Shown piece after piece: positions 8,758 to 39,989 of a stretch of 64,000 nt of DNA. Numbering within the stretch: the first letter of the stretch is position 1; the number at the start of each line of letters is the position of its first letter. The position numbers were made by a program, and so were the translations under genes. The stretch comes from Roseivirga sp. (GTDB lineage Bacteria > Bacteroidota > Bacteroidia > Cytophagales > Cyclobacteriaceae), in contig JAAWWF010000026.1 in NCBI GenBank assembly GCA_021404565.1, positions 1-64,000 on the forward strand, written 5' to 3'. The notes beneath the pieces are model-generated. The model did no database searches. It was given only the letters and a program-made list of their open reading frames with translations, and was not told the DNA's origin.

Positions 8758-8823
8758 TAAGACATTGTCTCTTGCCCCGATTTGTTCTAAATTCACAGAA
8801 TTTCAAAAAAAGGTCGATTACTC

Positions 8824-25565: not shown

Positions 25566-28500
25566 TCAAGCAGCTGACGATTTTCGAAACCTGGATATTA
25601 GAAAAAAAGCAACTGGTATGAACAGCAGGAACCACCAGAAACCCGGCAGGCCCGCACTCACTAAAGGTGCATCATTCCCATTGACAACAAAATGAGCCCA
25701 GTAATAGGGGTGTGACTGCAGAGCATCTGCCTTGTTGATATACTCAAGCTTAGCGGCAGACATCGATGTTGATTTGCTTTGTCCTTCGGCCAGATTTTGA
25801 TAGAAGCTCTTCATCAGCTGCCCTGAGCTCTGGTCATTGGCTAGCCAAAGGGTCATCACAGCGCTTCTGCTACCAGCATAAAAGAAGCCATTCGCCATAC
25901 TGATAACGCCTTCTCCTCTTATCACATCACCACTTCCCGAATTACAGGCACTTAACACCACCATATCTGCTGGTGCACGCATCGCGAATAACTCCCTTGT
26001 AAGCAGATTACCGTCATTCAGTGAGTCAAGGTCCTCTTCAGCAAACAGCAGTCTCGAATAGAGTGGTGCCTCATTGTTGATCAAACCATGGCTTGCAATA
26101 TGGATGATCGAGTAATCGTCAATGACTTCCTTGAAACGCTTCTCAGTGGCTTCTTTTGACAGAAAAGTCCTGGTATCCAAAACAGAAGCTATGCTGTTAA
26201 CTTCCTGTTCTGTCCAGATGAGATCGGCCAACTCACTTCGATCCTCAGAGACTGCAGCTCCAGCTCCGCCATCACCGGCCCAGGGTGCAAAAGCTGCTAC
26301 TTTGGGGTTAGCTGCGGATTTACCGGAAGACTGAAGGGCTAAAAGTGTGGCGGAGTTAGCATAAGATACGTTGACATTTTTCAACAAATAATCAAGGTCT
26401 TTAAAGCTCTTCTCAGTTCCTGTGTTTTGCAAAACCAGCGCCTCGAATGCCAGCAGGCCTAAGTCTCCATCCGGAATGATCAATAATTCGGATTTCCCCT
26501 CGAGGTTTTGCGGGGTAATACCCAATAGCGGGGAGAGGAATTTGCTAACGGCCAGATAATCTTCGAAGGCGGATTTGCTGTCCTGAAGCAAGCCAATAAA
26601 CTCCTTTAGTTTTACATGAAATTCCCTATCTATTGTTTTGGATTCAATTGCCACACCTTGCTTGCTGATTTTCATGAGTACAAGACTGCTGTTATTCAAC
26701 TGATAATGAAACATCATCTGGTTTTCATTGAGCAGGTCATTGCGGACTTCATCCAGTGAGGTAAATTCCTTTTCAATCTTCAGGCGATGGTAGGCTGGAA
26801 AGGACTTCTTCAGGTTTTCGTTAAACTCTGCCTCCGACTGTAGATAGGCAAACAGCTCGCTTTCATATTTCTGAATTCTACTGGTATCACTACCCTGATT
26901 CACTTCTTTTGCCTGATAGAGCTGAGCCTCCAGGAAAGCTATATTCTTGGCCAGGGCCCCTTTCAAAAAGAACAGGGAATCGGGTAAATCCAGCGTACCG
27001 AGCTGAATACTTTCATTCACATTGGCAATGATCAGATTGGCCTTATTTTTTTCCAGAGACTCAAAGATAAAATCACTGTAATCCTCACTTGTCAGCTCCA
27101 TAAGCTTCTTACTTACCGATACACTCAGGCTATTCAGGCGTGACAAAGTGCTTTTTATCAACAACCTGTCAGTATAATTGTCAGGATTATTATCCATTTT
27201 AAGCCCGACTTTGTGGCCAAGTTGCAGTGTAGACATTGCCAGTTCCAGAAAGGAAAGATCTTGGGTAGTTTTGTGTTTTTCTTCCAAAATGGCAGCCTTA
27301 TTGACAAGCGCCCTGAAAAGAGGTTTTTCATTAGCACTTTCAACCTCCTGAGGGTTAACCTCAATACTGGTATCGTTGAAATCGGGAACGGCAGCGATCA
27401 GGGCTTGCTGATATTGCGCCAACGCTTCTTCTTGTCTCCCGGTTTTGTACAGCAAAGCAGCATAAGCATTGCCTATTGAAGCAGGGTCATTTCCTTTGCC
27501 ACCGGTATTCTTAGTAACAATCTCCAGTGCCCGTGATAAATTCTTTAGCGCCTCCTCCTCTTTTAATTCGTTTTGAGCCTGAACCTCTCCCAACCTCAGG
27601 TATGTCAGTGCGAGAATTCTGGGATCAGCCTGCACGCTGGGTTTTGACAGAATATCCAGACTCTTTTGCAGACTACCAATAGCCTCTTTATTATCTCCCT
27701 TATTTTGGAAGATATGCCCCAGAATCAGATAGGCATTCCCTGTTTTCCTGTGATCAGTACCGAGCAAATCCTGGCAAAACTGCAAACATTCCCGGATGGT
27801 ACTCTCCGCATTTTCCCAATCGCCCAGAGTATTGTAATGGTCTGCCAGCCCCAACAGCATATCAATCATAAGCGGATCCTGCGGATTGTAGAGCTTCAGG
27901 ATGCTTCTCCCCTGCTGTACAAACTGTACGGCTTTTTGATTCAGACCCAGCTTGGAATAAGCCGAACTCAGGTTGTAATAAATCTTGATTAACTCAGGGT
28001 GATTAGGGTTTTGGTAAAGTTCACTGAGTAGTTCTGCCGATTTCTCCAGATAGCCTATGGCCTCCTCCATCAGGCCCATATAAATAGTTAAACCGCCCTG
28101 ATTATTGAGCACTTTGGCCACCCTGATATCGTTAACTCCCAATGAATCAAAAATGGCCAGCGCCTGGTCCCAGTCATTTCCAGCCTCAAAAAGCCCCCCT
28201 GTATTAGCAAGTGATACGCCCCTTCCGATGTAAACAGAGGCAAGGCGTTCACTGGCCTTGGGGTCCTCTTTTTCATAGTTATCCAGTGCCAGCTGATAAC
28301 TTTTAAGGGCATTGGCAAAGTCTCCTCCACTTTCATAAATAACTGCTTTGTTTCTATAGAGCTCCAACAGCAAATTATGACCCTTAATTTTGGCAGCCTG
28401 TCCCTCCACCTCTTCCAGCAAGGCAAAGGCCTCCTGATGTTTTCTCAATGCATTGAGGCTATACGCTTTTTCTATTTTGCTATGATAATAAGATGCCATG

Positions 28501-28685
28501 TCATCATCCACCTTATAGCCTTCCAAGGCTTTATCGTAGTAATAAATAGCACTGTCAAAGCGACCTATATTGGCCTGGTATCGTGCTTGCTCATGTAAAG
28601 TATCAGCCTTGCTTAGAATCTCTTCCTGAGCTAACAGGGATGTGGCACTCAGGATTGCCCAGAGTAGGGTAAAAACACTCTTCAT
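25566..28685 (-). CDS. CHAT-domain protease with TPR repeats, periplasmic and membrane-anchored
   Basis: A 1039-residue protein with a signal peptide (cleavage after LLA near residue 19), then about ten TPR or TPR-like repeats to about residue 450, a helical linker, and a C-terminal CHAT domain. The caspase-like dyad is intact: His866 in IASHG and Cys914 in SACNSG. A hydrophobic segment near residues 1008-1027 followed by basic residues would anchor it in the inner membrane with the protease in the periplasm. CHAT proteins cut partner proteins after binding by their repeats. It is the closest gene downstream of the HlyD gene, 184 bases away, and is a paralogue of the protein at 34848-37991. 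The target is unknown. Confidence 0.9.
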   Translation of the reverse strand: MKSVFTLLWAILSATSLLAQEEILSKADTLHEQARYQANIGRFDSAIYYYDKALEGYKVDDDMASYYHSKIEKAYSLNALRKHQEAFALLEEVEGQAAKIKGHNLLLELYRNKAVIYESGGDFANALKSYQLALDNYEKEDPKASERLASVYIGRGVSLANTGGLFEAGNDWDQALAIFDSLGVNDIRVAKVLNNQGGLTIYMGLMEEAIGYLEKSAELLSELYQNPNHPELIKIYYNLSSAYSKLGLNQKAVQFVQQGRSILKLYNPQDPLMIDMLLGLADHYNTLGDWENAESTIRECLQFCQDLLGTDHRKTGNAYLILGHIFQNKGDNKEAIGSLQKSLDILSKPSVQADPRILALTYLRLGEVQAQNELKEEEALKNLSRALEIVTKNTGGKGNDPASIGNAYAALLYKTGRQEEALAQYQQALIAAVPDFNDTSIEVNPQEVESANEKPLFRALVNKAAILEEKHKTTQDLSFLELAMSTLQLGHKVGLKMDNNPDNYTDRLLIKSTLSRLNSLSVSVSKKLMELTSEDYSDFIFESLEKNKANLIIANVNESIQLGTLDLPDSLFFLKGALAKNIAFLEAQLYQAKEVNQGSDTSRIQKYESELFAYLQSEAEFNENLKKSFPAYHRLKIEKEFTSLDEVRNDLLNENQMMFHYQLNNSSLVLMKISKQGVAIESKTIDREFHVKLKEFIGLLQDSKSAFEDYLAVSKFLSPLLGITPQNLEGKSELLIIPDGDLGLLAFEALVLQNTGTEKSFKDLDYLLKNVNVSYANSATLLALQSSGKSAANPKVAAFAPWAGDGGAGAAVSEDRSELADLIWTEQEVNSIASVLDTRTFLSKEATEKRFKEVIDDYSIIHIASHGLINNEAPLYSRLLFAEEDLDSLNDGNLLTRELFAMRAPADMVVLSACNSGSGDVIRGEGVISMANGFFYAGSRSAVMTLWLANDQSSGQLMKSFYQNLAEGQSKSTSMSAAKLEYINKADALQSHPYYWAHFVVNGNDAPLVSAGLPGFWWFLLFIPVAFFLISRFRKSSAA

Positions 28686-28868: not shown

Positions 28869-30164
28869 TTAGTTTTTCAGAATATCTTTCAATGAGCTAA
28901 AGAGACGCTCGATGAGCCGAAGGTCTTCTGTGATTATTTCTGCGGAAGAAGTCATTTCGGGAGTATAATCCAACCGGGTACCATATTGTGTAAGAAGTCC
29001 TTTTTCGAGATTCACGCCAATGGCATAAACCTCGCCATCGGCCAATAAGGGCAATGTGCTTATCACTCCCTGAATACTGCCATACTCACCGGATGGAAAC
29101 TTATCGAGCTTTAATTTAACTTCCTGACCAATTTTCACCTTACCAAAGCCCGCAGCGGGGATTTTTACCTCTACTTCATATTCCTTACCTGATGGAATAA
29201 CCGCGAACAGTGTTGTACCCGGATCAACAAGTTGGTTCGTTTTCACCCTTCCCTGATAGTCCAGTTTACCGGTTATCGGTGCCCTTATTGTAAAATCCGT
29301 TTCCCATCGAATAATGTAGTTCTGTAGGGTACTGATCATTGTCTCTATTCCGGATCTATCTTCCATTGACTTTTCGATACGTGCGATGGAAAAGTCCTGA
29401 ATCTGGCTTTCAAGGTCTTCAAGCGTGAGTTCACTCTGGATAATACTTTTCTTAATGGCCTCATCTGATTTCAGCGATTGATTATAGGCTGTTTTTGCAT
29501 TCAGGAAGTCCAGCTTGGCGATAAGTCCAAGCTTGAATTCTTCCTCCTTCATTTCAAACCTTTCCCTGGCATGCACAATGTCTTTTCTGCTCAATTTCGC
29601 TTCATTTAATGTTATTTGCTTAAGGTCGGTATGGTGCTTCAACCTGGTTTTTAGTGTCTGCAATTTTCGGAATTGATCCTCGTCAAATAAAAATATCTCA
29701 TAGTCTTTCAGCGCATTTTTCAGATTGAGGAAGTCATTGGAGGCATCATACAAATTGACCGTTTGCGCATTTTCAAAACTCCTAGGCACGGAATCGCTCA
29801 TAAATGTATTTGCCTGCTCAAGAAAAGACCTCAAATACTCAATGGATGCCACAGGTATCGGGTTGGCCATTTCAGCAATCACCTGCCCTGAAGAGACCTG
29901 CTCTCCATTGCTAATATGAATTTTGTGAATTCTTCCACTCACTTTGGTGGATACATAAACTGGCGGAGTGGCTGTGGAGATTATGGCGCGGCCCTCGATT
30001 ATATCAGGATATTTAATGAAATAGCTTAGTGTAAATACTGCCAATACTATAAGCATAAGGACCGTATTACCCCGGCTGACCATCCAGTTAGGTGGTCTGT
30101 TGAGGATGTTCTGAACATCTTCTGACCTGAGTTCTATGTTGATATGATCGTCTTCCTCTGGCAT
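28869..30164 (-). CDS. HlyD-family membrane fusion protein
   Basis: The adaptor links the inner-membrane exporter to an outer-membrane channel. The 431-residue chain has one transmembrane helix at about residues 33-53 after a short cytoplasmic lead. A biotinyl-lipoyl half follows (GRIHKIHISNGEQVSSGQVIAEM), then a long alpha-helical hairpin from about 95 to 275, the second half motif FTIRAPITGKLDY, and a beta-barrel domain. It starts directly after the C39 ABC transporter stop, with no gap, so the two are one unit. No TolC-type outer-membrane gene is nearby. This is the normal partner of a bacteriocin-type exporter. Confidence 0.93.
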   Translation of the reverse strand: MPEEDDHINIELRSEDVQNILNRPPNWMVSRGNTVLMLIVLAVFTLSYFIKYPDIIEGRAIISTATPPVYVSTKVSGRIHKIHISNGEQVSSGQVIAEMANPIPVASIEYLRSFLEQANTFMSDSVPRSFENAQTVNLYDASNDFLNLKNALKDYEIFLFDEDQFRKLQTLKTRLKHHTDLKQITLNEAKLSRKDIVHARERFEMKEEEFKLGLIAKLDFLNAKTAYNQSLKSDEAIKKSIIQSELTLEDLESQIQDFSIARIEKSMEDRSGIETMISTLQNYIIRWETDFTIRAPITGKLDYQGRVKTNQLVDPGTTLFAVIPSGKEYEVEVKIPAAGFGKVKIGQEVKLKLDKFPSGEYGSIQGVISTLPLLADGEVYAIGVNLEKGLLTQYGTRLDYTPEMTSSAEIITEDLRLIERLFSSLKDILKN

Positions 30165-32351
30165 TTAGCTTCCAAGTTCAAGTTGATTCTTCACCAATTC
30201 AAAGTAGGATCCTTTCAGGGCAACAAGTTCTTTATGGTTGCCTGTCTCTACCACATTGCCCTGATCCAGCACCACAATCTGATGGGCATTTTTTACGGTG
30301 CTTAAGCGATGGGCGATTACGAGGACCGTTTTATTCTCGAAAAACCTATTGAGGTTCTCCATGATCGTCTTTTCATTGTTCGCATCGAGTGCCGAAGTCG
30401 CTTCGTCAAAAAACAAGAATCTCGGATCTTTATAGACGGCCCTCGCAATTAAAAGCCTTTGTTTCTGCCCGGTGCTCAGGCCTATACCCTCCATTCCTAT
30501 TTTCGTATTGTAGGCCAATGGTAATGATTCTATAAAGTCTCTCAGGTTTGCTACCTCCAGGGCATGCAGCATCTTTTCTTTATCTATCACATCATCACCA
30601 ATGGCCACATTACTGGCGATGGTATCATTGAAGATATAGCCCTCCTGCATCACGACTCCACACTTATCCCTCCAGGCTTGCTGGGTAATAGCATCAAGAT
30701 CTCCATTGCCTATCATGATTTTGCCGGAGCCGGGTTCGTAGAATTTGAGTAACACCTTCATCAGTGTGGTTTTACCTCCCCCACTTACTCCAACTATGGC
30801 TGTTACTTTATTGGCAGGTATTGTCAGACTAAGGTTTTTCAAGACATTCACATCTGATCCGGGGTAGCGGAAGCTCATATTTTCCAGTGCGATATCCCTG
30901 TCTACGGGAACTTCGGCATGCTTCTCACTATCATGCTGCTTCTCATCTTCCATGTTATGAATTTCTCCTAACCTGTCAAGTGAAATTTTGGCGTCCTGCA
31001 CTTCTTTGATAAAGCTGATCAGCTGGGTGATGGGTGAATTCAGCTGACCTACGATATAAGAGATGGCCATCATCATACCTAATGTGAGTTCTCCTTTAAT
31101 CACCAGGGTGGCTGAAATGACTGAGATCAGTATATTTTTCAGCTCATTGATAAAGGATGAGCCTATGCTCTGGTATTGTTCCAGGGCGAGGCTCTCTATG
31201 GATAGTTTAAAGAGCCGGGCTTGCAGGTGCTCCCAGGCCCAGCGTTTTTTCTTCTCAGCATTATGCAGCTTGATCTCCTGCATGCCGTTAATCAGTTCTA
31301 TTACTTTGCTCTGCTCGTTACTGGTCTGATTAAACTTTTTGTAGTCCAGATTCTTTCTCTTTTTCAGGAAAACAACAATCCAGAGGAAATAAAGTACGCT
31401 GCCTGCCAGAAATATGGAGAAAATCAAAAGGCTGTAGGTGGCCAGTACAATACCGAATATGATCAGGTTCAGGAATGAGAAAAGCACATTGAGAGAGGAG
31501 GTGGTCAGTATGCGCTCAATACGACTGTGATCATTGATTCTCTGTAGGATATCTCCCGTCATTTTAACATCGAAAAACGAAATGGGCAGGTTCATCAGTT
31601 TGATGAAAAAATCTGAGATTAAAGAAATGTTGATTCTGCCACTTACATGAAGCAATATCCAGCTTCTGATAACTTCTATGGCTGTTCTTCCAAAGAACAG
31701 AAACAGCTGGGCAATCAGGATGAGGTAGACAAAGTCCAGGTCCTGATTTTCAATACCAACATCCACAATACTTTGCGTTAGGAAAGGGGCAACTAACTGC
31801 AATAAACTGGCTGCCATAAGCCCGATAACCAGCTGAAGTAGCAGGCGTTTGTACTGAAGCAGATATTTAGAAATGAACTTTAAATTATAGCTGATGTCTT
31901 GCTCATAAGGTTCCTGAAAGAGCTTGGGGGTTGGTTCCAGTAACAAGACAATTCCTTCTTCTGTGGTAGCATCAGCATTTTTCCCTATCCATGAAGTAAT
32001 AAATTCATCTCTCGTATAAGAGAGCAGTCCTGAAGCCGGATCAGATACATGAATTTTATCTTTCCTGATCTTATAAACCACTGCATAGTGATTCTTATTC
32101 CAATGCACAATAGCGGGCAAGGGGGCGCCTTCAGCGAAGTTTTCATAATTTATTTTAACCCCAACAGTGCGAAACCCAACTGACTCGGCCGCATCGCTCA
32201 AGCCCATCATAGAACTCCCCTCCCTTGTGGTTTGAGCAAGGGTTCTGAGGTGCTGTGTATTAATACTCTTGCCATAGTGCCTGGCAATAATTTTAATACA
32301 GGTAGGTCCGCAATCTTTTGATTCAGATTGTTTATAAAAAGGAAACCTCAT
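30165..32351 (-). CDS. C39 peptidase ABC transporter for a double-glycine leader peptide
   Basis: The protein cuts the leader from its peptide after Gly-Gly and exports the mature part with ATP. The 728 residues hold an N-terminal C39 peptidase with the full triad: Cys14 in KDCGPTC, His88 in WNKNHYAVVY and Asp104 in HVSDPASG. Six transmembrane helices follow from about residue 165 to 445, then an ATPase with Walker A GVSGGGKTT and signature LSTGQKQR. It lies 94 bases after the cysteine-rich peptide gene and directly before the HlyD gene. The peptide at 32446-32670 is the obvious substrate. The intact triad means cleavage is expected, unlike in HlyB-type transporters. Confidence 0.95.
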   Translation of the reverse strand: MRFPFYKQSESKDCGPTCIKIIARHYGKSINTQHLRTLAQTTREGSSMMGLSDAAESVGFRTVGVKINYENFAEGAPLPAIVHWNKNHYAVVYKIRKDKIHVSDPASGLLSYTRDEFITSWIGKNADATTEEGIVLLLEPTPKLFQEPYEQDISYNLKFISKYLLQYKRLLLQLVIGLMAASLLQLVAPFLTQSIVDVGIENQDLDFVYLILIAQLFLFFGRTAIEVIRSWILLHVSGRINISLISDFFIKLMNLPISFFDVKMTGDILQRINDHSRIERILTTSSLNVLFSFLNLIIFGIVLATYSLLIFSIFLAGSVLYFLWIVVFLKKRKNLDYKKFNQTSNEQSKVIELINGMQEIKLHNAEKKKRWAWEHLQARLFKLSIESLALEQYQSIGSSFINELKNILISVISATLVIKGELTLGMMMAISYIVGQLNSPITQLISFIKEVQDAKISLDRLGEIHNMEDEKQHDSEKHAEVPVDRDIALENMSFRYPGSDVNVLKNLSLTIPANKVTAIVGVSGGGKTTLMKVLLKFYEPGSGKIMIGNGDLDAITQQAWRDKCGVVMQEGYIFNDTIASNVAIGDDVIDKEKMLHALEVANLRDFIESLPLAYNTKIGMEGIGLSTGQKQRLLIARAVYKDPRFLFFDEATSALDANNEKTIMENLNRFFENKTVLVIAHRLSTVKNAHQIVVLDQGNVVETGNHKELVALKGSYFELVKNQLELGS

Positions 32352-32395
32352 GGTGGGAGAAGTGATTTTGACTGGTCAATCAGAAAGGGAAGTTC

Positions 32396-32429
32396 AAAGA
32401 AAAGGGGGCTCACACCAATGTGTGAGCCC
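32396..32429 (-). terminator. Terminator or attenuator between peptide and exporter genes
   Basis: A perfect 10-bp stem (32429-32420 with 32415-32406) over four bases is followed on the minus strand by CC and a U-rich run. It begins 17 bases after the peptide stop and ends 45 bases before the exporter start. Partial termination here would give more peptide mRNA than exporter mRNA. Confidence 0.7.
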
Positions 32430-32445
32430 AATTGCCAATGGTCAA

Positions 32446-32670
32446 TCAATGAATAATGCCACAGGGACCACCTGGTTGTTGATCAGGATCATGCATCATG
32501 CAGTGCCCGGCTGAGCAATACCAGCATTGTACGTTACCGCACTGACTTGCAAAAGAGCAACATCCGTAAATCCAGTCACAGATGCCGATAAGGCCACCAC
32601 CGCTCACTTCTTTTTGAGCAGATTTTGAAAGCACCTTGGCTCCCGGCAGGTTTGAAATTAAACTGTTCAT
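32446..32670 (-). CDS. Cysteine-rich peptide precursor with double-glycine leader
   Basis: A 74-residue precursor. Residues 1-25 form a bacteriocin-type leader as seen in Bacteroidota (KVLSKSAQKEVSGG, cleavage expected after Gly25 or Gly26). The predicted core of about 49 residues holds eight cysteines: one in GICDW, a pair in YGCCSF, then QCG, QCWYC, HCM and PCG. It also has aromatic residues and a Pro-Gly-rich tail. Eight is an even number, which fits four disulfides, and the upstream neighbour is a disulfide-forming VKOR fusion. No lanthionine, radical-SAM or cyclodehydratase gene is nearby, so disulfides are the only modification suggested. The activity, whether antimicrobial, signalling or structural, is unknown. 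Confidence 0.85.
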   Translation of the reverse strand: MNSLISNLPGAKVLSKSAQKEVSGGGLIGICDWIYGCCSFASQCGNVQCWYCSAGHCMMHDPDQQPGGPCGIIH

Positions 32671-32732
32671 AATAAAAAATTAGATTGTATAAAGTCCCTG
32701 ACGTATTTAGAGACACACAGGGGTTTGCGTCT

Positions 32733-32749
32733 ATTCTCCGCGAGAGAAT
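32733..32749. repeat. Short inverted repeat upstream of the peptide gene
   Basis: ATTCTC pairs with GAGAAT over five bases, 63 bases before the peptide ATG and 57 bases after the VKOR fusion stop. There is no T tract. It could be an operator or an mRNA hairpin. Confidence 0.3.
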
Positions 32750-32805
32750 TTCTTAAATGAAGCCATTCAGGTTCCTGATGAAATTATGCTGATGTCAAGC
32801 TTTAG

Positions 32806-34404
32806 CTACCCGGTGAGTTCGGTGAGGTCTTCAGTGAAGTAAGCGAGGTCTTCTAAGCCAAATTGTTTGGGAAACTCCCGACCGTTTATAAGGGTGACGG
32901 GCGTAAAATTGAGCCCCTGCTCACTGCACCATTTTCTGTGTGCTTCCAGCCCAAGGAGAATCTCGCCATCATCGGATTGGCCCCATGTGCTGATCCAGTC
33001 TTCCTGAGGCATATTTGAGTAAGCTTCATGCCATGCCCTCATGAATGTCTTTGAGTCAGCCTTGTGATAAATCTCCATGAGCTTTTGGGCTATCAGGGTT
33101 GCTTCCTCTTCATGGTTTTGATAGTTGACGCTGAACCTTACAACCACCTGTACCTCTGACGGTCCGGAAAGCAGGCTGACTAGTTGCTGATGTTGCTCTT
33201 TGCAATAGAAGCAAGATGGATTGGTTATGGCAACAATCTTGAGAGCACAGTCTTTGTCCTGATTGCCCAGGACCAACTCGGAAGTGTAATCCACTGCGTA
33301 ACTGAGCTTTGGCTGGTTCAGGTAAGCTGGCTTAAAAAGTTCAAAATCTCGTCTTAACTTAAAATAATCGACTTGCAGATTTTGAAGTGACTGAGAACTG
33401 CTGATTGCTTTTTTCAGAATCACCCAGGCCGAAATGACTGTTAACACGGAAAGAGACTCGCCCAAAAGGTCGGATGTCACCCAGCTAAAACTCAGCACAT
33501 CGGTTCCCGAAGCCAGCACAACTCCTGCCTGTGCCCATAAAATGAGAACACTTACCAGGCAGAGCCGACACCACTTTTTAATCCTGAATGCCTGATAAAT
33601 GATAGAGTATACAGTGATGGGCAAAACCAGCAGGCTGCCTGTATATACCATGGAAACCTCAAAATCGGAACCAAGGCCTTTCAAAACCCAAAAACTCAGA
33701 AGGCTTCCGAAATAGATAATTCCCAGATCGGTTAGTTTTAACCATCTAAATATTGAAGCTCCCTGAGAGGCCAAAACATCTTCACAGCTTGTCTTCTCTC
33801 CTTCGCCACAAATCTTGCTGATCAGGGCCGAGTTCAGGCCCATCTCACTTCGGTAGATCAAACCAAATATGGCTAAGCCGCCTAAGGATAAAAACAGATG
33901 ACCGAGTTGATACCAATCCGTAACGGAACGATATAAAGCAACCCCGGATACAACTGCCAGCAAAGCGATCAGGCCCGAGACTAAAGCGTTTCCTCTGAAT
34001 AAATCGAGTTTCGTTTTTATTCCCTTCTCTACCAGCACCACCAGCCCGGTCCACATGTCTAAAAAAGCTGATATGCTGTACCGCACTTGTTCATCTACAC
34101 TTTTGTAAACCAATACCTCGTCTTTGACTCTTTTGGCCAGTACCATCCCATTTCGACCCCCATCTGAAACCCAGGCAAAAAAGCTCTGAGGCAACAAGCC
34201 GAGGGTAGTATCATCGGCATTGACCTCAGCGGCTACATTAGGTACTTTTAAATGATCCAGCGCATCTGTCAGAGCCCTGAAGCTACCCGATCCGGGATGA
34301 CCGAGGAATTGTACTCTTAATTCTGATTGGGGAATGTGATGGTTGTTTTCACGTAGGTATAAGTCAAGGACTTCTATTATTTCTTTTTTACCGGTGTCAG
34401 ACAT
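32806..34404 (-). CDS. VKOR-thioredoxin fusion with degenerate C39-like N-terminal domain
   Basis: A 532-residue membrane oxidoreductase that would form disulfides in exported peptides and return electrons to quinone. Residues 1-130 look like a C39 peptidase fold (HPGSGSFRALTDALDHLKV) whose catalytic cysteine is absent. Five or so membrane helices from about 138 to 330 form the VKOR domain, with loop cysteines Cys199 and Cys207 and the quinone-side pair Cys279-x-x-Cys282. A thioredoxin-like domain at about 370-530 carries Cys398-Phe-Tyr-Cys401. The dead peptidase domain may bind the same leader as the live C39 exporter. It is the gene before the eight-cysteine peptide, 135 bases away. The oxidase role is inferred from family and context. 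Confidence 0.88.
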   Translation of the reverse strand: MSDTGKKEIIEVLDLYLRENNHHIPQSELRVQFLGHPGSGSFRALTDALDHLKVPNVAAEVNADDTTLGLLPQSFFAWVSDGGRNGMVLAKRVKDEVLVYKSVDEQVRYSISAFLDMWTGLVVLVEKGIKTKLDLFRGNALVSGLIALLAVVSGVALYRSVTDWYQLGHLFLSLGGLAIFGLIYRSEMGLNSALISKICGEGEKTSCEDVLASQGASIFRWLKLTDLGIIYFGSLLSFWVLKGLGSDFEVSMVYTGSLLVLPITVYSIIYQAFRIKKWCRLCLVSVLILWAQAGVVLASGTDVLSFSWVTSDLLGESLSVLTVISAWVILKKAISSSQSLQNLQVDYFKLRRDFELFKPAYLNQPKLSYAVDYTSELVLGNQDKDCALKIVAITNPSCFYCKEQHQQLVSLLSGPSEVQVVVRFSVNYQNHEEEATLIAQKLMEIYHKADSKTFMRAWHEAYSNMPQEDWISTWGQSDDGEILLGLEAHRKWCSEQGLNFTPVTLINGREFPKQFGLEDLAYFTEDLTELTG

Positions 34405-34847: not shown

Positions 34848-37800
34848 CTAAGAAGTGTACTTCTTCTTTTTTATTAAAAGAATCGCGGAGAGGACGAACA
34901 AGAGTATCAGGGCCAACAAGTAGTAATCAGGACTTGATTTCAGAAGGGGCCGATCATCACCATTGACTACAAAATGCGCCCAGTAATAGGGATGGGCCAG
35001 GAGGCCATTCCTTTCTTCCAGATAAGAAAGTTTGGCATGACGGAGGGCCTGACTTTTTGATTCTCCCTGCGCCAGGTTTTTGTAGAACTGATCCATTATC
35101 AGGGAAGAGCTTTGGTCGTTAGCTGTCCAGAGGGTCATGACAAGGCTTTTTGATCCTGCATAAAAGAAGCTGTTAGCAAGGCTCAATATTCCTTCACCCG
35201 TAAATACTTCGCCCCGACCGGTGTTACAGGCGCTCAAAACCACCATTTCGGCAGGCACATCAAGGTTGAAGATCTCCCGGGTATTGAGGTATCCGTCATT
35301 AACAGAGTCCGTGTCAAATGGCGCAAATACAAGTTTGGAATACATAGGATCTTCTTCGTTGAGAAGTCCATGGCTGGCAACATGCACAATGGCATATTCG
35401 GAGCTCAGCTGCTTAAATATCTTTTCGGTTGCCTGTTGCTCAACAAATGGTTGTGTAATGAAGTGGTTTGAAATACCTGATACTTCATCAGAAACCCAAC
35501 TAAGCTCCCCCAGTCCGCTTCTTACAGTGTCATTCATGGCCAGAGCGTTTTGTCCGGGTACATTGAAGACAGGAGCGAAGGCCAAAACCTCATTGGTTTC
35601 AAAGATTTTCGGCTGTTCAATTTGCCTCGAAAGCACCATAGCGGAGCTCGCATAACTAATGGCATGTGATTTAACGAGATATTCCAGGCCCTGAAACCCC
35701 GTAGCCTCCTTTTGAGAATTTGTGGACAATGTTGCAAAAGGAACCAGCGCAATAATGTCGTCAGGTATGATGGTAAGACTCTGGTAGTTTTCTATCTGCA
35801 GGGTATCGGGTAATAGTATCGAGGAAAGTCTTTCATTCAGAGCTTTGAATTTTTTGAACTCAGCTGCACTCTGAGCGGGCTTGTCTAATGCTCCTAAATA
35901 AGCTGACACAATCGAATCCAGATCTGCTGTAACCTGTGTTTTAATCAATTTGGTCTTGCGTTTGTCAATGGCAAAAGTATAGAGCTTACCCTCATCCAGG
36001 TGGTATGCAATGAGCAACTTATTCCTACCAATCAACTGCTTTCTGACCTGATCTAAGTCGATATGATTATCTGCATATTTTTCTCTGTAGTAGCTTGGGT
36101 AATTTTCCCTGATCTGGTCTAGAAAAGCCGCCTGCCTGTCTCTTTCTTTCAATAGCCGGTTTCGATAGTATTCTGTCTTTATCGAGTCATTGCTTGAATA
36201 GATCTCTGCTTCTAAATAGCTGATACCTGCCTCATAGTCTTCCCCCAGGGCGATCAGGGAATCAGGTAGGCTGGACTGATTGAGAAATATATTTTCCTGG
36301 ATGCTAAAGAGTACCAGGCTGGCCTTGTCTTTATCGGCAAACTGGAAAGCCTGATCCAGATAACGAGATTCTTTAGTAAGATCATAAAGCCTGTTGGCAG
36401 TACGAAAAGCCAGGCCATTTATTTCCGAAACCCTCTTTTGATAAGTCAGTTTATCCGCAAAAATTCGCGGTCTGGTTCTTAATTGTCTCGCAAGGGTATC
36501 TGCCTTCAGCACGGTAGCATAAACTGCATTGAGTGACTCCGGCTTTTTGTCTGCGATTCTTCCTAAGGATTGGGCTTTTCGGGTAAGTAAAGAAAGCAGC
36601 GTTGCATCATCCTGAAAAGCCTCGGAAGCCGGGTTTTTCATGAGGTCCATACTACTGAACTCAGGTGATTTGGTTGTCAGCGTCTTCTGATAGTAGTAGA
36701 CAGAAGAATCATACTGGGCCAAATCATAAAACAAATCCCCAAGGTCACTATACATGCCGAATATGATGTTTCCTTGATCATATTCGCTGTTTTTTACTAT
36801 TCCAAGGGCATTATAAATGGTACTAAACCCCTTACTTTCATCTCCCTTCATCGCCATAGTTGTACCCTCAAGGAATAGGGCCTGCGGATACTGTGTCTCG
36901 TTTATAGGAAACTCCAATGGTTCGTAAATGGCACTGGCCTGCCGGAAATATTGAAGCGCCTGTTCATGATCCCCCATTCGCCTGAAATATTTGGCCAGAT
37001 TGGTATAGGCTTGTGCGGTAAAGGAGCTGCTTTGGCCATGCAAGCGAATGTTATGGTCCAGTGCCTCTTGTTTGAGTTCTAAGGCTTTCTCCTCTTCACC
37101 CATATTCATGTAAACACCAGATAAGTGTTCTTTGATTTCCGGAGTTCTGAAATCTCTTGGCGTAGCCTGGAGAGATAGATTCAAAGCCTCTGTCAATAGC
37201 TCTATTGCTTCTTTATAGGCATATCGTTCTGCAGCCAAATCTCCCTGTGCCGTATAGTTGAGCATCAAATTCCGGTTGCCCTTGGTCGGAGGTAATTGAT
37301 TAATAATCTCAAGCTGCTTTTTCAGGTAGTATTCAGCTTTTTTTATCAAGCCCTGCTCCTGCGCCAGCCCTGCAAGATTATGATAATTGATACCTGCGTT
37401 GGGGTGCAGAATATCCTTGGATTCGAAGAGGTGTTCAACCTTCTCATAATATTCCTGAGCCTTTAACGCAAATTGTTGGTTACTATAAATGTAGCCTTGC
37501 CCCATATACATCAGTGCCCTGAGCATATTAGTTTTTCTTGTGTCCAGCTCTTCAAAACTCTCCTCAGCAAGTGCATAATATTCCTGAGCCAGTTCTATCT
37601 CAGATCTTTCTAAGGCCTGCGTAGCCAGATTCAAGTAAGCATAGAAAACAACATTGCCTCCTTTAACTTCTTTGGCTTCCCTGGCTATGGCTAAAGACTT
37701 GGCGGTACTTTCTTCAAATCTACCGGCACGATATATTTCGCTAGACTGCTCAATCCTCATCTGAAAATGCCTGATCAGATCATTGTTGGCCAGGTAAACT

Positions 37801-37991
37801 TCAGATGCTGCGAGATAGTAATAGGCCGCGCTGTCATAGCTTCTAAGCGTAGTGAAATCCCAGGCCTTATCCGCCAGTGAATCTGCCTTTAACTTGAGGG
37901 AGAGAGAGTCGGTTTGTGCAAGCAACTCACTATCGCCAAAAGCGGCTATGCCCGTGAATAAGAATATTGATAACCAGATTGTCCTTTTCAT
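34848..37991 (-). CDS. CHAT-domain protease with TPR repeats, second paralogue
   Basis: The 1047-residue protein has the same plan as the one at 25566-28685: a signal peptide (cleavage after LLA near residue 25), many TPR repeats to about residue 450, a helical middle, and a CHAT domain. The dyad is intact at His874 (VASHG) and Cys922 (SACNTG). The C-terminal hydrophobic segment at about residues 1022-1041 ends in KKKKYTS and would anchor the protein in the inner membrane. It follows the putative anti-sigma gene by 68 bases and is probably in the sigma-factor operon. The two paralogues share the CHAT end strongly and differ in the TPR half, as expected if they bind different partners. Confidence 0.9.
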   Translation of the reverse strand: MKRTIWLSIFLFTGIAAFGDSELLAQTDSLSLKLKADSLADKAWDFTTLRSYDSAAYYYLAASEVYLANNDLIRHFQMRIEQSSEIYRAGRFEESTAKSLAIAREAKEVKGGNVVFYAYLNLATQALERSEIELAQEYYALAEESFEELDTRKTNMLRALMYMGQGYIYSNQQFALKAQEYYEKVEHLFESKDILHPNAGINYHNLAGLAQEQGLIKKAEYYLKKQLEIINQLPPTKGNRNLMLNYTAQGDLAAERYAYKEAIELLTEALNLSLQATPRDFRTPEIKEHLSGVYMNMGEEEKALELKQEALDHNIRLHGQSSSFTAQAYTNLAKYFRRMGDHEQALQYFRQASAIYEPLEFPINETQYPQALFLEGTTMAMKGDESKGFSTIYNALGIVKNSEYDQGNIIFGMYSDLGDLFYDLAQYDSSVYYYQKTLTTKSPEFSSMDLMKNPASEAFQDDATLLSLLTRKAQSLGRIADKKPESLNAVYATVLKADTLARQLRTRPRIFADKLTYQKRVSEINGLAFRTANRLYDLTKESRYLDQAFQFADKDKASLVLFSIQENIFLNQSSLPDSLIALGEDYEAGISYLEAEIYSSNDSIKTEYYRNRLLKERDRQAAFLDQIRENYPSYYREKYADNHIDLDQVRKQLIGRNKLLIAYHLDEGKLYTFAIDKRKTKLIKTQVTADLDSIVSAYLGALDKPAQSAAEFKKFKALNERLSSILLPDTLQIENYQSLTIIPDDIIALVPFATLSTNSQKEATGFQGLEYLVKSHAISYASSAMVLSRQIEQPKIFETNEVLAFAPVFNVPGQNALAMNDTVRSGLGELSWVSDEVSGISNHFITQPFVEQQATEKIFKQLSSEYAIVHVASHGLLNEEDPMYSKLVFAPFDTDSVNDGYLNTREIFNLDVPAEMVVLSACNTGRGEVFTGEGILSLANSFFYAGSKSLVMTLWTANDQSSSLIMDQFYKNLAQGESKSQALRHAKLSYLEERNGLLAHPYYWAHFVVNGDDRPLLKSSPDYYLLALILLFVLSAILLIKKKKYTS

Positions 37992-38059: not shown

Positions 38060-38752
38060 TCAGTTAAGCTGATCTAATATTTCCCTGGCGGCTTCCTGAT
38101 TCGGACCTACCTTTTCCACCTGTCGCAAATAATAAATGGCCGAATCTCGATGATCCGTTAAGAGAAAACCCAGTCCTCTATACCAAATTGATGGGTTATA
38201 GAAAATGCTTGAACGCTCAATACTACTTAACCCCGACACCGCCTGTTCGGGGAGTCTTAGCTCAAGCTGGCTCAGTGATCTATAGAAAGAAACGGTATCA
38301 GAATCAGCTAAATCATTGAATAACCCTATAGCCTTTTTGTACTCCCTTCTTTCGTATGAAGCCAATGCCTCATAGACATCTCCTTCTGTGGCTCTACTGG
38401 TTATGGCATTGGGATACACGGTGAAATATTCGTCAAAGAGTAAATCAGGTTCCACCGTTTTACTGGGTAAAAACAACCAAACCAAAGCCAGGGCTGCAGC
38501 AACCCTTACCGGGATGAGATACTTAATTGAGATTCCTTTCTTTACGGAAGGCTCCTTCTTCATAATATCACTCAGCTCATCACGAATGCCCAGAGATTTG
38601 ATCAGAAACACTTCTTGTTTGTACTTATCGAAATCTAATTTTAGTTCAGCATCTTCAGCCATCCTCTGCTCAAAACCTGCCTCAAGATCAGCAGACAAGC
38701 GCCCCTCTAAATAGGCATCATAGCGTTCAATATTTTGCTCTCTAATGGTCAT
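38060..38752 (-). CDS. Putative membrane anti-sigma partner with TPR-like periplasmic part
   Basis: A 230-residue single-pass protein. The first 75 residues are acidic and helical (ERYDAYLEGRLSADLEAGFEQRMAED), which matches the N-terminal region of Bacteroidota anti-sigma-like proteins but lacks a zinc-finger HxxxCxxC motif. A membrane helix lies at about 78-95. The periplasmic part has two or three TPR-like helical pairs (YEALASYERREYKKAIGLFNDL, WYRGLGFLLTDHRDSAIYYLRQV). The start overlaps the sigma-factor stop as ATGA, so they are coupled. Control of the sigma factor is inferred from position and layout only. Confidence 0.75.
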   Translation of the reverse strand: MTIREQNIERYDAYLEGRLSADLEAGFEQRMAEDAELKLDFDKYKQEVFLIKSLGIRDELSDIMKKEPSVKKGISIKYLIPVRVAAALALVWLFLPSKTVEPDLLFDEYFTVYPNAITSRATEGDVYEALASYERREYKKAIGLFNDLADSDTVSFYRSLSQLELRLPEQAVSGLSSIERSSIFYNPSIWYRGLGFLLTDHRDSAIYYLRQVEKVGPNQEAAREILDQLN

Positions 38753-39312
38753 ATAATGAAATGATCCTTTTTCAAACCATATCCCTGAATTATTTCGCCA
38801 AGCTTTTTCATGCAGCGTAGTTTTTTTGTCCTCGCTACCTGAGTACTGCTTAACCCAAACCTCCGGGCCAGCTCCTCCATACTGCTTCCGTTATAGTAAA
38901 AGCCCGTAAGAAAGGAGCGACAATCGACATCCATCCGGGCTAACACTTCCCTAATAAGATTTGCATTGATTTCATCATTGTGACCATCTGTTAGTTGATC
39001 ATTCTCAAGGGAGGTAGTCACGATTTTTCGTTTTCTGATCTGCTGCAACCAAAGATTTCTGGCAACAGCATAAGTGTAGGAGGTGATCGCTGACTCTCCT
39101 CTGAATTTACCCTCCAGCAGGTTTTTATAAACTACAGCAATGGTGTCCTGAAAAAAGTCTTTAGCCTCTTCTTCAGTACCGCTGTTTGACTGAATGTAGG
39201 CGGCTACTTTGGGGAAACAATTTTCATAAAGGTATTCAAGGGCTTCCGCTCTTTTCCGCTTATCAGATGATAAGATGTAGTCTATGCAGCTATTCGGTCT
39301 CATGAGGAACAA
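38749..39312 (-). CDS. ECF-type RNA polymerase sigma factor
   Basis: The 187-residue protein has sigma region 2 at about residues 25-95 (DFFQDTIAVVYKNLLEGKF, ITSYTYAVARNLWLQQIRKRK) and region 4 at about 125-175 with a helix-turn-helix (SMEELARRFGLSSTQVARTKKLRCMKKL). Region 3 is absent, as in ECF factors. An alternative start is Met4. It heads the operon with the putative anti-sigma and the CHAT protease, and it diverges from a small cysteine-containing secreted protein. Its likely targets are these genes, and possibly the export locus at 25.6-34.4 kb. Target promoters could not be recognised by eye. Confidence 0.93.
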   Translation of the reverse strand: MFLMRPNSCIDYILSSDKRKRAEALEYLYENCFPKVAAYIQSNSGTEEEAKDFFQDTIAVVYKNLLEGKFRGESAITSYTYAVARNLWLQQIRKRKIVTTSLENDQLTDGHNDEINANLIREVLARMDVDCRSFLTGFYYNGSSMEELARRFGLSSTQVARTKKLRCMKKLGEIIQGYGLKKDHFII

Positions 39313-39584
39313 CGCAATTTGAATAAATCAACTGAGATACGCCACAAAAAGACCCCTAACTGGCCTCATAATTACTTATTAAAGCACAATAAACTCTTTA
39401 AAACACGAGTCATACGGATTATTCATAAGAATCAGGGCTTTTTCAAAACTGATTTGAATAAGAGATAACATTATAAAACCAGTAAAATCCACCATATCAG
39501 AAAAAAGTTCAATGATTGTGACTACGCTTAAGAAACAGACGCAACCTAAGGGTGAAATCAATTTTTAAACTAAACAAATCAGTT

Positions 39585-39989
39585 ATGAGAAAATTAATGA
39601 CATGCTTTGTCCTTCTGGCATTTATCGCGAGTACAAATGTCCAGGCCCAAGAAGTAGGAGGAAGAGTAGATCCTCCTTGCTATCCCGGTATTCAGACCTT
39701 GACTGCAGCGCAACAACTGCAACTTTCAGCACAAGGTTATGCTCTGGGTCTTCAGCTTGGTTGTGAAGAAACGTCCTCGGGTCAAAACAATTCGACTGTA
39801 ATCACAACTATTGACTGGGCTGATTGTCAGGGAATACCCATATATGGTGAAGGCGTAATGATCGGCTATCTGCGCGCCCGTTATGGGTCACCAGATCGCT
39901 GCATTTACTGTGCAAATATCAGCTGCAATCCTCCAGGTGGTGGAGGTGGTGGTGGTGGTACTGGCGGAGGGTCAGGACCTATTGGATAG
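39585..39989 (+). CDS. Small secreted six-cysteine protein with polyglycine tail
   Basis: Family not recognised. The frame opens at a GTG at 39552, but the ATG at 39585 gives a clean signal peptide (KLMTCFVLLAFIASTNVQA) and is preferred; the protein is then 134 residues. The mature part has six cysteines (PPCYP, LGCEE, ADCQG and the cluster RCIYCANISC) and ends in a glycine tail of eight Gly, Thr, three Gly. The tail is encoded mostly by GGT and GGA triplets. It diverges from the ECF sigma gene across 272 bases, and has its own terminator. The even cysteine count and the nearby VKOR and CHAT genes suggest a disulfide-bonded partner of the same system. That link is inference. Confidence 0.7.
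   Translation: MRKLMTCFVLLAFIASTNVQAQEVGGRVDPPCYPGIQTLTAAQQLQLSAQGYALGLQLGCEETSSGQNNSTVITTIDWADCQGIPIYGEGVMIGYLRARYGSPDRCIYCANISCNPPGGGGGGGGTGGGSGPIG

What the first reader, a model, noticed from the sequence alone, without database searches (positions are those of the whole stretch)
28869..34404. Disulfide-rich peptide export locus: VKOR fusion, eight-cysteine double-glycine peptide, C39 exporter, HlyD
The sequence shows an ordered set of genes: a VKOR-thioredoxin membrane oxidase, a 74-residue precursor with a Gly-Gly leader and eight cysteines in the core, a C39 ABC exporter with intact Cys14/His88/Asp104, and an HlyD adaptor. C39 exporters cut Gly-Gly leaders and VKOR enzymes make disulfides. 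No other modification enzyme is present. The inference is a peptide exported and locked by four disulfides, a class of product poorly described in Bacteroidota. Its role could be antimicrobial, signalling or self-directed.
Basis: partly seen in the sequence, partly recalled or inferred. Interest (0 to 1): 0.8.

Follow-up and report, generated by a model that had tools for sequence, protein, structure and literature searches.

The report
Leader-guided disulfide peptide export locus
A bacterium of the Bacteroidota carries genes that appear to build a small peptide locked by disulfide bonds, using an unusual membrane enzyme that seems to grip the peptide's leader and to work on the inside of the cell before the peptide is exported.

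Summary
In detail: VKOR fusion, 74-aa GG peptide with eight core Cys, C39 exporter and HlyD lie in that order. It is one member of a Bacteroidota system: 248 GG-leader ORFs, 242 with four or more core Cys, in 52 of 62 VKOR stretches. Non-redundant cores have even Cys counts in 175, odd in 21, and Cys is conserved better than other residues, so disulfides are likely. The VKOR protein begins with a C39-fold domain without catalytic residues that keeps a likely leader-binding pair. It has an extra transmembrane segment, and its charge bias is reversed in 56 of 56 analysable fusions versus 0 of 27 ordinary VKORs. So leader reader, VKOR cysteines and thioredoxin domain probably face the cytoplasm: a leader-guided oxidase acting before C39 cleavage and export. 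Disulfides, topology and activity are unproven, and the window core has no detectable relative. Closest known: bacteroidetocins. Cores are acidic on average; the peptide's target is open.

The parts
32806..34404 (-). pseudo-C39 - TM - VKOR - thioredoxin fusion, proposed leader-guided disulfide oxidase (532 aa)
34030..34404 (-). N-terminal C39-fold domain (residues 1-125); no Cys in window residues 1-139
   Evidence: hhalign vs exporter C39 E 5e-13; AF2 mean pLDDT 91.2 for residues 1-135; Foldseek PCAT1 peptidase E 9.2e-7, TM 0.69; 0 of 58 with DCG motif
33931..33987 (-). extra transmembrane segment between pseudo-C39 and VKOR (residues 140-158)
   Evidence: hydropathy
33520..33897 (-). VKOR domain, Cys199, Cys207, Cys279-X2-Cys282
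   Evidence: PF07884; near-invariant Cys in 58-row alignment
32845..33255 (-). thioredoxin/DsbA-like domain, Cys398-X2-Cys401
   Evidence: Pfam Thioredoxin_4 weak; PDB profile hits to DsbA/DsbC-like proteins; C398 invariant, C401 near-invariant
32596..32670 (-). 25-aa GG leader of the precursor (L-12, Q-7, V-4, G-2 G-1)
32449..32595 (-). 49-aa core peptide, eight Cys
32406..32429 (-). hairpin (10 bp) followed by T-rich run between peptide and exporter genes, terminator/attenuator-like
   Evidence: (z -3.32)
30165..32351 (-). C39 peptidase ABC exporter, Q8/C14/H88/D104 present
28869..30164 (-). HlyD-family adaptor
34848..37991 (-). TPR-CHAT protein upstream of the VKOR gene (444 bp away); a CHAT protein lies 32-169 bp before VKOR in 6 other loci, one of them partial
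38749..39312 (-). ECF-type sigma factor; related sigma genes in 7 other VKOR stretches

Best explanation
The locus makes and exports one disulfide-rich peptide. The precursor's GG leader is bound by the catalytically dead C39 domain at the N-terminus of the VKOR fusion. The fused thioredoxin domain puts disulfides into the core on the cytoplasmic face of the inner membrane and is re-oxidised by the VKOR domain (to quinone, by analogy with VKOR). The still-leadered peptide is then passed to the C39-ABC exporter, which cuts after GG and exports the core through HlyD and an outer-membrane channel encoded elsewhere. Supported here by computation: gene order, exporter catalytic residues, the C39 fold and its lost catalytic residues, family-wide even and conserved Cys, the extra segment and the reversed charge bias. 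Inferred: leader binding, cytoplasmic oxidation, order of steps, four disulfides in this core, and the biological target.
For: Exporter Q/C/H/D present in 32 of 32. Family: 248 GG-leader ORFs in 52 of 62 stretches, 245 on the VKOR strand; 197 non-redundant cores: 175 even, 21 odd, one without Cys; control ORFs 536 even, 1050 odd; Cys 13% of core residues against 5 of 6129 leader residues; Cys conserved 90% vs 52% in 258 pairs; related cores look constrained, median dN 0.26, dS 1.35 in 129 usable of 181 pairs. Co-occurrence in 98 family genomes: close C39 exporter in 19 of 21 fusion genomes vs 12 of 77 others, p 2.5e-10; leader hits 14/21 vs 5/77, p 2.7e-8. Pseudo-C39; no DCG motif in 58, His at 1 of 58; positions aligned to PCAT1 A55/I59, which hold leader -7/-12 (PMC6959990 section 8), are Leu/Ser in the exporter (29 of 32 each) and Leu (53 of 58) and Thr or Ser (50 of 58) in the pseudo-C39; the window has Met48/Ser52 and Phe42/Thr46. 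Topology: two hydrophobic segments before the first VKOR Cys in 59 of 59 fusions tested, 0 of 5 ordinary VKORs tested; Cys side the more positive in 56 of 56 analysable fusions and 11 of 11 further rows (two of them repeats), 0 of 27 ordinary VKORs.
Against: No experiment shows a disulfide, export or orientation. Hydropathy and the positive-inside rule are simple predictors, and the charge measure was set up after seeing the window's charges. The window core has no relative and its AF2 model is useless (pLDDT 41). A single-sequence PDB search with the window fusion finds neither C39 nor VKOR; the homology rests on profiles. Six of 58 fusions have a Cys in the first 30 residues, two rows have one at the column next to where the catalytic Cys would lie. 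10 of 62 stretches show no leader peptide. In G048 the fusion stands apart from its exporters and leader peptides, which are on other contigs. Two fusion genomes, G026 and G029, have no C39 exporter at E 1e-10. Fusions also sit beside weak ATP-grasp plus SPASM (L075) or LanC-like (L077) genes. Leader hits occur in five genomes counted as fusion-negative: G021, G038, G055, G070, G097; G038 has a fusion fragment and the G021 genes lie at contig starts, but in G070 Cys-rich peptides sit beside a split exporter with no fusion seen. 21 cores have odd Cys counts. The leader and exporter profiles used for co-occurrence were built partly from the same fusion genomes.
Confidence: 0.6

Rival explanations
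1. Same disulfide-rich peptide, but ordinary compartment logic: VKOR and thioredoxin face the periplasm and oxidise the core after C39 cleavage and translocation; the pseudo-C39 domain only docks the oxidase to the exporter or binds the core.
For: Ordinary VKORs act at the periplasmic face (established knowledge); the cytoplasm is normally reducing. HlyB carries a C39-like domain (PDB 3zua, hit) that does not cleave (recalled).
Against: Charge bias is reversed in 56/56 analysable fusions vs 0/27 ordinary VKORs, and the extra segment puts the pseudo-C39 on the same side as the VKOR cysteines, which would leave a leader-type domain in the periplasm, where the cleaved leader is not expected.
Confidence: 0.25
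2. Bacteroidetocin-like class II bacteriocin: an antibacterial peptide whose disulfides mainly stabilise it.
For: Bacteroidetocin regions also join a GG peptide with Cys, a thiol oxidoreductase and a C39 exporter and lack immunity genes (PMC6671954). This is compatible with the best explanation as the peptide's role. No other same-strand ORF of 60+ aa lies between VKOR and HlyD in the window or in 15 other of 32 such intervals, one of them only 35 bp.
Against: Leader 25 aa not 15-16, eight not four Cys, one fusion in place of a TM protein plus an oxidoreductase; cores are acidic on average (mean net charge -1.65; window core -3) rather than cationic; up to 18 leader-peptide ORFs in one stretch.
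Confidence: 0.35
3. The Cys bind metal or carry another crosslink (thioether) rather than disulfides.
For: Related fusions occur beside LanC-like or ATP-grasp/SPASM genes; 19 and 14 of 101 relatives match NCBIfam leader_Chryseo and the rSAM-target family TIGR04149 at E <= 0.1.
Against: No such enzyme among the 20 window proteins scanned; an oxidase defines every locus studied; even Cys counts; few CxC (0.22 per core) and few His (0.79 per core, though 3 in the window core).
Confidence: 0.08
4. The 74-aa ORF is a chance ORF and the locus serves peptides encoded elsewhere.
For: No homologue of the core.
Against: Leader HMM from other genomes E 1.2e-6, unique in the window; position between VKOR and exporter, where 31 of 37 stretches with a same-strand downstream exporter have a leader peptide; followed by a strong hairpin plus T-run.
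Confidence: 0.03

Closest known systems
Bacteroidetocins (class IIf bacteriocins, PMC6671954; passages and section 7 read)
   Same: Bacteroidota; GG-leader Cys peptide; thiol oxidoreductase and C39-ABC exporter in one region; no obvious immunity gene
   Different: 15-16 aa leader, 42-aa core with four Cys, separate five-TM protein and separate oxidoreductase; no C39-like domain on the oxidase or reversed topology in the passages read; whether their TM protein is VKOR-like could not be tested here
PCAT/C39 exporters such as PCAT1, LahT, ComA (PMC6959990: passages and section 8; PMC6363468: passages)
   Same: Exporter of this locus keeps the catalytic residues and substrate leader logic (L-12, residue -7, -4, GG)
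   Different: Here a second, inactive C39 copy is fused to an oxidase; leader -7 is mostly Gln (209 of 248) instead of Leu
VKOR-thioredoxin disulfide oxidases (PDB 4nv6, VKORC1/thioredoxin domain protein)
   Same: Four VKOR Cys and a thioredoxin-like CxxC domain
   Different: Extra N-terminal pseudo-C39 and extra segment; charge bias reversed
Inverted VKOR of the archaeon Aeropyrum pernix; inverted DsbB/VKOR used in E. coli cytoplasm (recalled; papers not held)
   Same: Cytoplasm-facing disulfide formation
   Different: Not tied to a leader-binding domain or to peptide export, as far as recalled
TMcin disulfide step (DsbA-type tmcD, PMC13252029; outline with abstract, and section 8)
   Same: A dedicated oxidoreductase in a peptide cluster makes the product's disulfide
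   Different: DsbA family, Staphylococcus, membrane-integrated one-disulfide peptide

Membership tests
C39 peptidase ABC exporter (PCAT) | C39 domain with Q/C/H/D, ABC membrane and nucleotide-binding domains | tested here: met
C39 peptidase ABC exporter (PCAT) | cleaves the partner peptide after GG | not testable with these tools
   leader matches the known pattern; no cleavage data
VKOR family | Pfam VKOR above cut-off and four conserved Cys | tested here: met
   53.1 bits vs 27.5; C199, C207, C279, C282 near-invariant
VKOR family | active site on the periplasmic side | tested here: not met
   charge bias says the opposite, 56/56 vs 0/27; a prediction, not a measurement
Peptidase C39 (N-terminal domain of the fusion) | C39 fold | tested here: met
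Peptidase C39 (N-terminal domain of the fusion) | catalytic Cys/His/Asp | tested here: not met
   no DCG motif in 58; no Cys at the extrapolated position in 58 (2 at the next column); His at 1 of 58; Asp at 18 of 58
Bacteroidetocin (class IIf) | 15-16 aa GG leader, about 42-aa core with four Cys | tested here: not met
   25-aa leader, 49-aa core, eight Cys
Bacteroidetocin (class IIf) | separate TM protein and thiol oxidoreductase genes plus C39 ABC | tested here: not met
   one fused protein in the window; exporter present
Bacteroidetocin (class IIf) | kills Bacteroidales | not testable with these tools
   needs assay
NCBIfam TIGR04149 / leader_Chryseo precursor families | model match | tested here: not met
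   window peptide: no family at E<=0.1; 14 and 19 of 101 relatives match at E<=0.1
WAP or other eukaryotic Cys-rich mini-domains | Pfam match of the core | tested here: not met
   window peptide none; 9 of 101 relatives hit WAP at E<=0.1, best 5e-5

The most novel reading that the evidence does not exclude
Bacteroidota have a general factory for disulfide-rich mini-proteins in which a dead C39 domain reads the GG leader and an inverted VKOR-thioredoxin makes the disulfides in the cytoplasm before export: a leader-guided disulfide synthase, i.e. disulfides installed with RiPP logic. One enzyme and one exporter serve arrays of up to 18 precursors with mostly four-, six- and eight-Cys cores, a bacterial counterpart of venom or plant defensin repertoires.
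Probability: 0.5. Interest if true: 0.92.

Novelty: new variant of a known kind. Interest (0 to 1): 0.77.

Why it matters
If right, bacteria fold disulfide mini-proteins on the inside of the cell with a substrate-specific, leader-recruited oxidase. That would be a new way to guide disulfide formation, a possible tool for making disulfide-rich peptides in E. coli, and would open a large little-explored set of secreted Bacteroidota peptides (fusion in 33 of 296 sampled phylum genomes). The claim is directly testable with one enzyme and one short peptide.

Tried and rejected
Core-to-core relatives of the window peptide: the only hit in 98 family genomes besides itself (G050, E 0.008) lies in another frame of a 678-aa ORF and was dropped; the best local score to 247 other cores (49) is below the mean of 60 Cys-fixed shuffles (50.7). 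Diversifying selection in cores was expected and not found: median dN is well below dS, but dS is high and only 13 pairs have core dS < 0.6. AF2 on the lone precursor gave pLDDT 41 and was not interpreted. Pfam WAP/EB/nodulin/knottin-like hits of relatives are weak and may only reflect Cys spacing. Promoter scan: 2 found, 0.8 expected, not used. Chance-ORF and metal-binding readings rejected as above. Ten paper searches listed no paper that I recognised as describing a C39-VKOR fusion (both terms: none); only open-licence papers are held and I opened four. That curated domain databases may already list a VKOR subfamily fused to a C39 domain is my recollection, unchecked.

Limits of the counts: leader finding used an HMM trained on 77 leaders from the same loci, so leader conservation is partly by construction; Cys content was not used in scoring, but training leaders had cores with at least 3 Cys. 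The 62 stretches hold one contig twice (L075 = L080), so 61 are distinct. The co-occurrence table was tallied by hand; 'close' exporter was set at 140 bits after seeing the scores, and the profiles came partly from the same genomes. Two of 58 fusions (L091, L097) and two of 29 ordinary VKORs (L164, L169) could not be analysed for topology; some of the 27 ordinary VKORs are near-copies from one genus; several VKOR matches were not fetched as loci; the two-segment test was run on 5 of the 27. The Cys-conservation alignments used BLOSUM62, which favours Cys-Cys columns. The PCAT1 residue mapping was done by hand (offset 3 between paper and chain numbering).
Full report
Observation. The 74-residue precursor reads as a 25-aa leader ending in GG and a 49-aa core with eight Cys, spacing 5-0-5-4-2-4-12. 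A leader model built from 220 leaders of other genomes finds this ORF alone among 532 in the window (E 1.2e-6, next 2.8) and it has the most Cys of 197 ORFs of its size range. Between peptide and exporter genes lies a 10-bp hairpin followed by a T-rich run (z -3.32); such sites follow 43 of 248 leader-peptide ORFs, 36 of 468 ORFs of 250+ aa and 15 of 744 random places.

The system is larger than the window. The same genome has a second locus (C18: VKOR, exporter, HlyD and four GG Cys peptides) and a third (C48: VKOR and exporter, with GG peptides near the ends of contigs C48 and C81). Fusion relatives were found in 21 of 98 family genomes, in 39 loci of named genomes, all Bacteroidota by their record titles (a scan with two short patterns, not exhaustive), and in 33 of 296 phylum genomes. 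I studied 62 stretches: the window, two own paralogues, 39 named loci and 20 family-genome loci. Leader peptides were found in 52 of the 62: 248 ORFs, 245 on the VKOR strand, 242 with at least four core Cys, up to 18 per stretch. In 37 stretches an exporter follows the VKOR gene on the same strand, and 31 of these have at least one leader peptide between them. In 16 of 32 VKOR-to-HlyD intervals, the window's included (one is only 35 bp), there is no other same-strand ORF of 60 aa or more that could be an immunity gene.

Evidence for disulfides. Among 197 non-redundant cores, 175 have an even number of Cys (mostly 4 or 6), 21 an odd number and one none; control ORFs from the same stretches are 536 even and 1050 odd. 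The excess holds in Flavobacteriaceae loci (113 vs 12) and in the others (62 vs 9). Leaders hold 5 Cys in 6129 residues against 13% in cores. In 258 pairs of related cores, Cys are conserved at 2432 of 2698 places and other residues at 8772 of 16990. Related cores show dN well below dS, so the peptides look like real genes under constraint; variety seems to come from many distinct families rather than rapid change within one.

Link between the parts. In 98 genomes of the family, a close C39 exporter occurs in 19 of 21 genomes with the fusion and 12 of 77 without (p 2.5e-10); leader hits in 14 of 21 and 5 of 77 (p 2.7e-8). The profiles were built partly from these same genomes, so the contrast is somewhat flattered. 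Exceptions are real: in G048 the fusion lies apart from its exporters and leader peptides, which are on other contigs; G026 and G029 have no C39 exporter at E 1e-10, although G026 has two leader peptides by its fusion; five genomes counted as fusion-negative have leader hits (G021, G038, G055, G070, G097), of which G038 has a fusion fragment at a contig edge, G021 genes lie at contig starts, and G070 shows Cys-rich peptides beside a split exporter with no fusion seen; one locus carries weak ATP-grasp and SPASM genes and one a LanC-like gene.

The fusion's first domain is a dead C39. Profile comparison with the exporters' own C39 domains gives E 5e-13; PDB profile search finds ComA (2e-7 with the full profile; 2e-5 with the domain alone), though the window sequence alone finds neither C39 nor VKOR; the AF2 model has mean pLDDT 91.2 and its best Foldseek hits are PCAT1 and ComA peptidase domains (E 9e-7 to 1e-5, TM 0.66-0.69). 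No fusion has the DCG motif; none of 58 has Cys at the extrapolated catalytic position, 2 have it at the next column, and 6 have some Cys in the first 30 residues; the window has none in residues 1-139; His is found at 1 of 58 and Asp at 18 of 58, while the exporters keep Q, C, H and D in 32 of 32. Two PCAT1 residues that hold the leader's positions -7 and -12 (A55, I59; PMC6959990 section 8) align, by hand, with position 48/52 of the exporter (Leu 29, Ser 29 of 32) and 42/46 of the pseudo-C39 (Leu 53 of 58; Thr or Ser 50 of 58); the window has Met/Ser and Phe/Thr there. Leaders have L-12 in 243 of 248, Q-7 in 209, I or V at -4 in 241 (partly by construction of the search). So the domain has lost cleavage but kept what looks like the leader-binding pair. 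Leader binding itself is inference.

Orientation. The fusions carry an extra hydrophobic segment between the dead C39 and the first VKOR helix; two segments precede the first VKOR Cys in all 59 fusions tested and in none of the five ordinary VKORs tested alongside. Thus the dead C39, the VKOR Cys and the thioredoxin domain should lie on one side. Mean K+R counts in fusions are 2.45 and 3.00 in the two Cys-side stretches and 0.48, 0.36 and 0.32 in the three on the other side; in ordinary VKORs 0.33 and 1.00 against 2.85, 2.85 and 2.81. The Cys side is the more positive in 56 of 56 analysable fusions and in 11 of 11 further rows, two of them repeats, but in 0 of 27 ordinary Bacteroidota VKORs. 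By the positive-inside rule the catalytic side of the fusion faces the cytoplasm. This fits with leader reading, since in PCAT1 the leader is bound and cut by the cytosolic peptidase domain (PMC6959990 passages), and with a wide export path (15,000 cubic angstrom cavity reported there).

Mechanism and role. Best reading: leader-guided cytoplasmic disulfide formation, then GG cleavage and export. The product's role is open. Cores are acidic on average (mean net charge -1.65, window -3), which speaks against a simple cationic membrane-active peptide. Bacteroidetocins show that such loci can make antibacterial peptides without an immunity gene (PMC6671954). A TPR-CHAT gene lies directly before VKOR, with an ECF-type sigma gene beyond it, in L005, L042, L047, L064 and L072 as it does more loosely in the window; L063 has a partial CHAT ORF there. 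This suggests ECF regulation in part of the family.

Novelty. Known: GG peptides with Cys, a thiol oxidoreductase and C39 export in Bacteroidota. Not found in the library searched (ten searches listed under Tried and rejected; open-licence papers only): a dead C39 fused to VKOR, its reversed orientation, and the arrays of Cys-rich cores. I file it as a new variant of a known kind, with a real chance that the maturation step is a new principle.

Noticed in passing
window 34848-37991 and 25566-28685: Two TPR-CHAT (caspase-like) proteins flank the locus; a CHAT protein directly precedes the VKOR gene in L005, L042, L047, L064, L072 (and a partial one in L063), with an ECF-type sigma gene beyond it in the first five.
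   Followed up: partly
G000:C48:143-205 and G000:C81:519677-522391: A third own-genome peptide type (pattern ...AYCA...CTP) near the ends of two contigs, which may be one locus split by the assembly; the C48 VKOR and exporter genes abut and no HlyD was found in the stretch.
   Followed up: partly
L075 4370-6502: Cyclobacterium lianum VKOR-fusion locus with a weak ATP-grasp match and a SPASM protein between VKOR and exporter: the fusion may also serve graspetide-type precursors.
   Followed up: no
L077 7847-10440: Alistipes VKOR fusion followed by a LanC-like gene.
   Followed up: no
L097: A fusion in which no VKOR CxxC was found, in the genome (G029) where no C39 exporter was detected: possible decay together.
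   Followed up: no
L044, L046, L048, L051, L053, L054, L056, L059, L060: In Tenacibaculum the locus sits behind an ORF of about 941 aa with a weak ABC match that looks like uvrA (name recalled) and a 226-249 aa ORF; the one of these tested (L048) has no Pfam match.
   Followed up: partly
window 39552-39989: Divergent ORF next to the sigma gene: apparent signal peptide, several Cys and a Gly-rich tail, no Pfam or NCBIfam match.
   Followed up: no
L069, L095, L053: Two VKOR fusions in one stretch (L069, L095) and near-identical duplicated peptide genes (L053 16125-16343 and 16867-17085), signs of recent local duplication.
   Followed up: no
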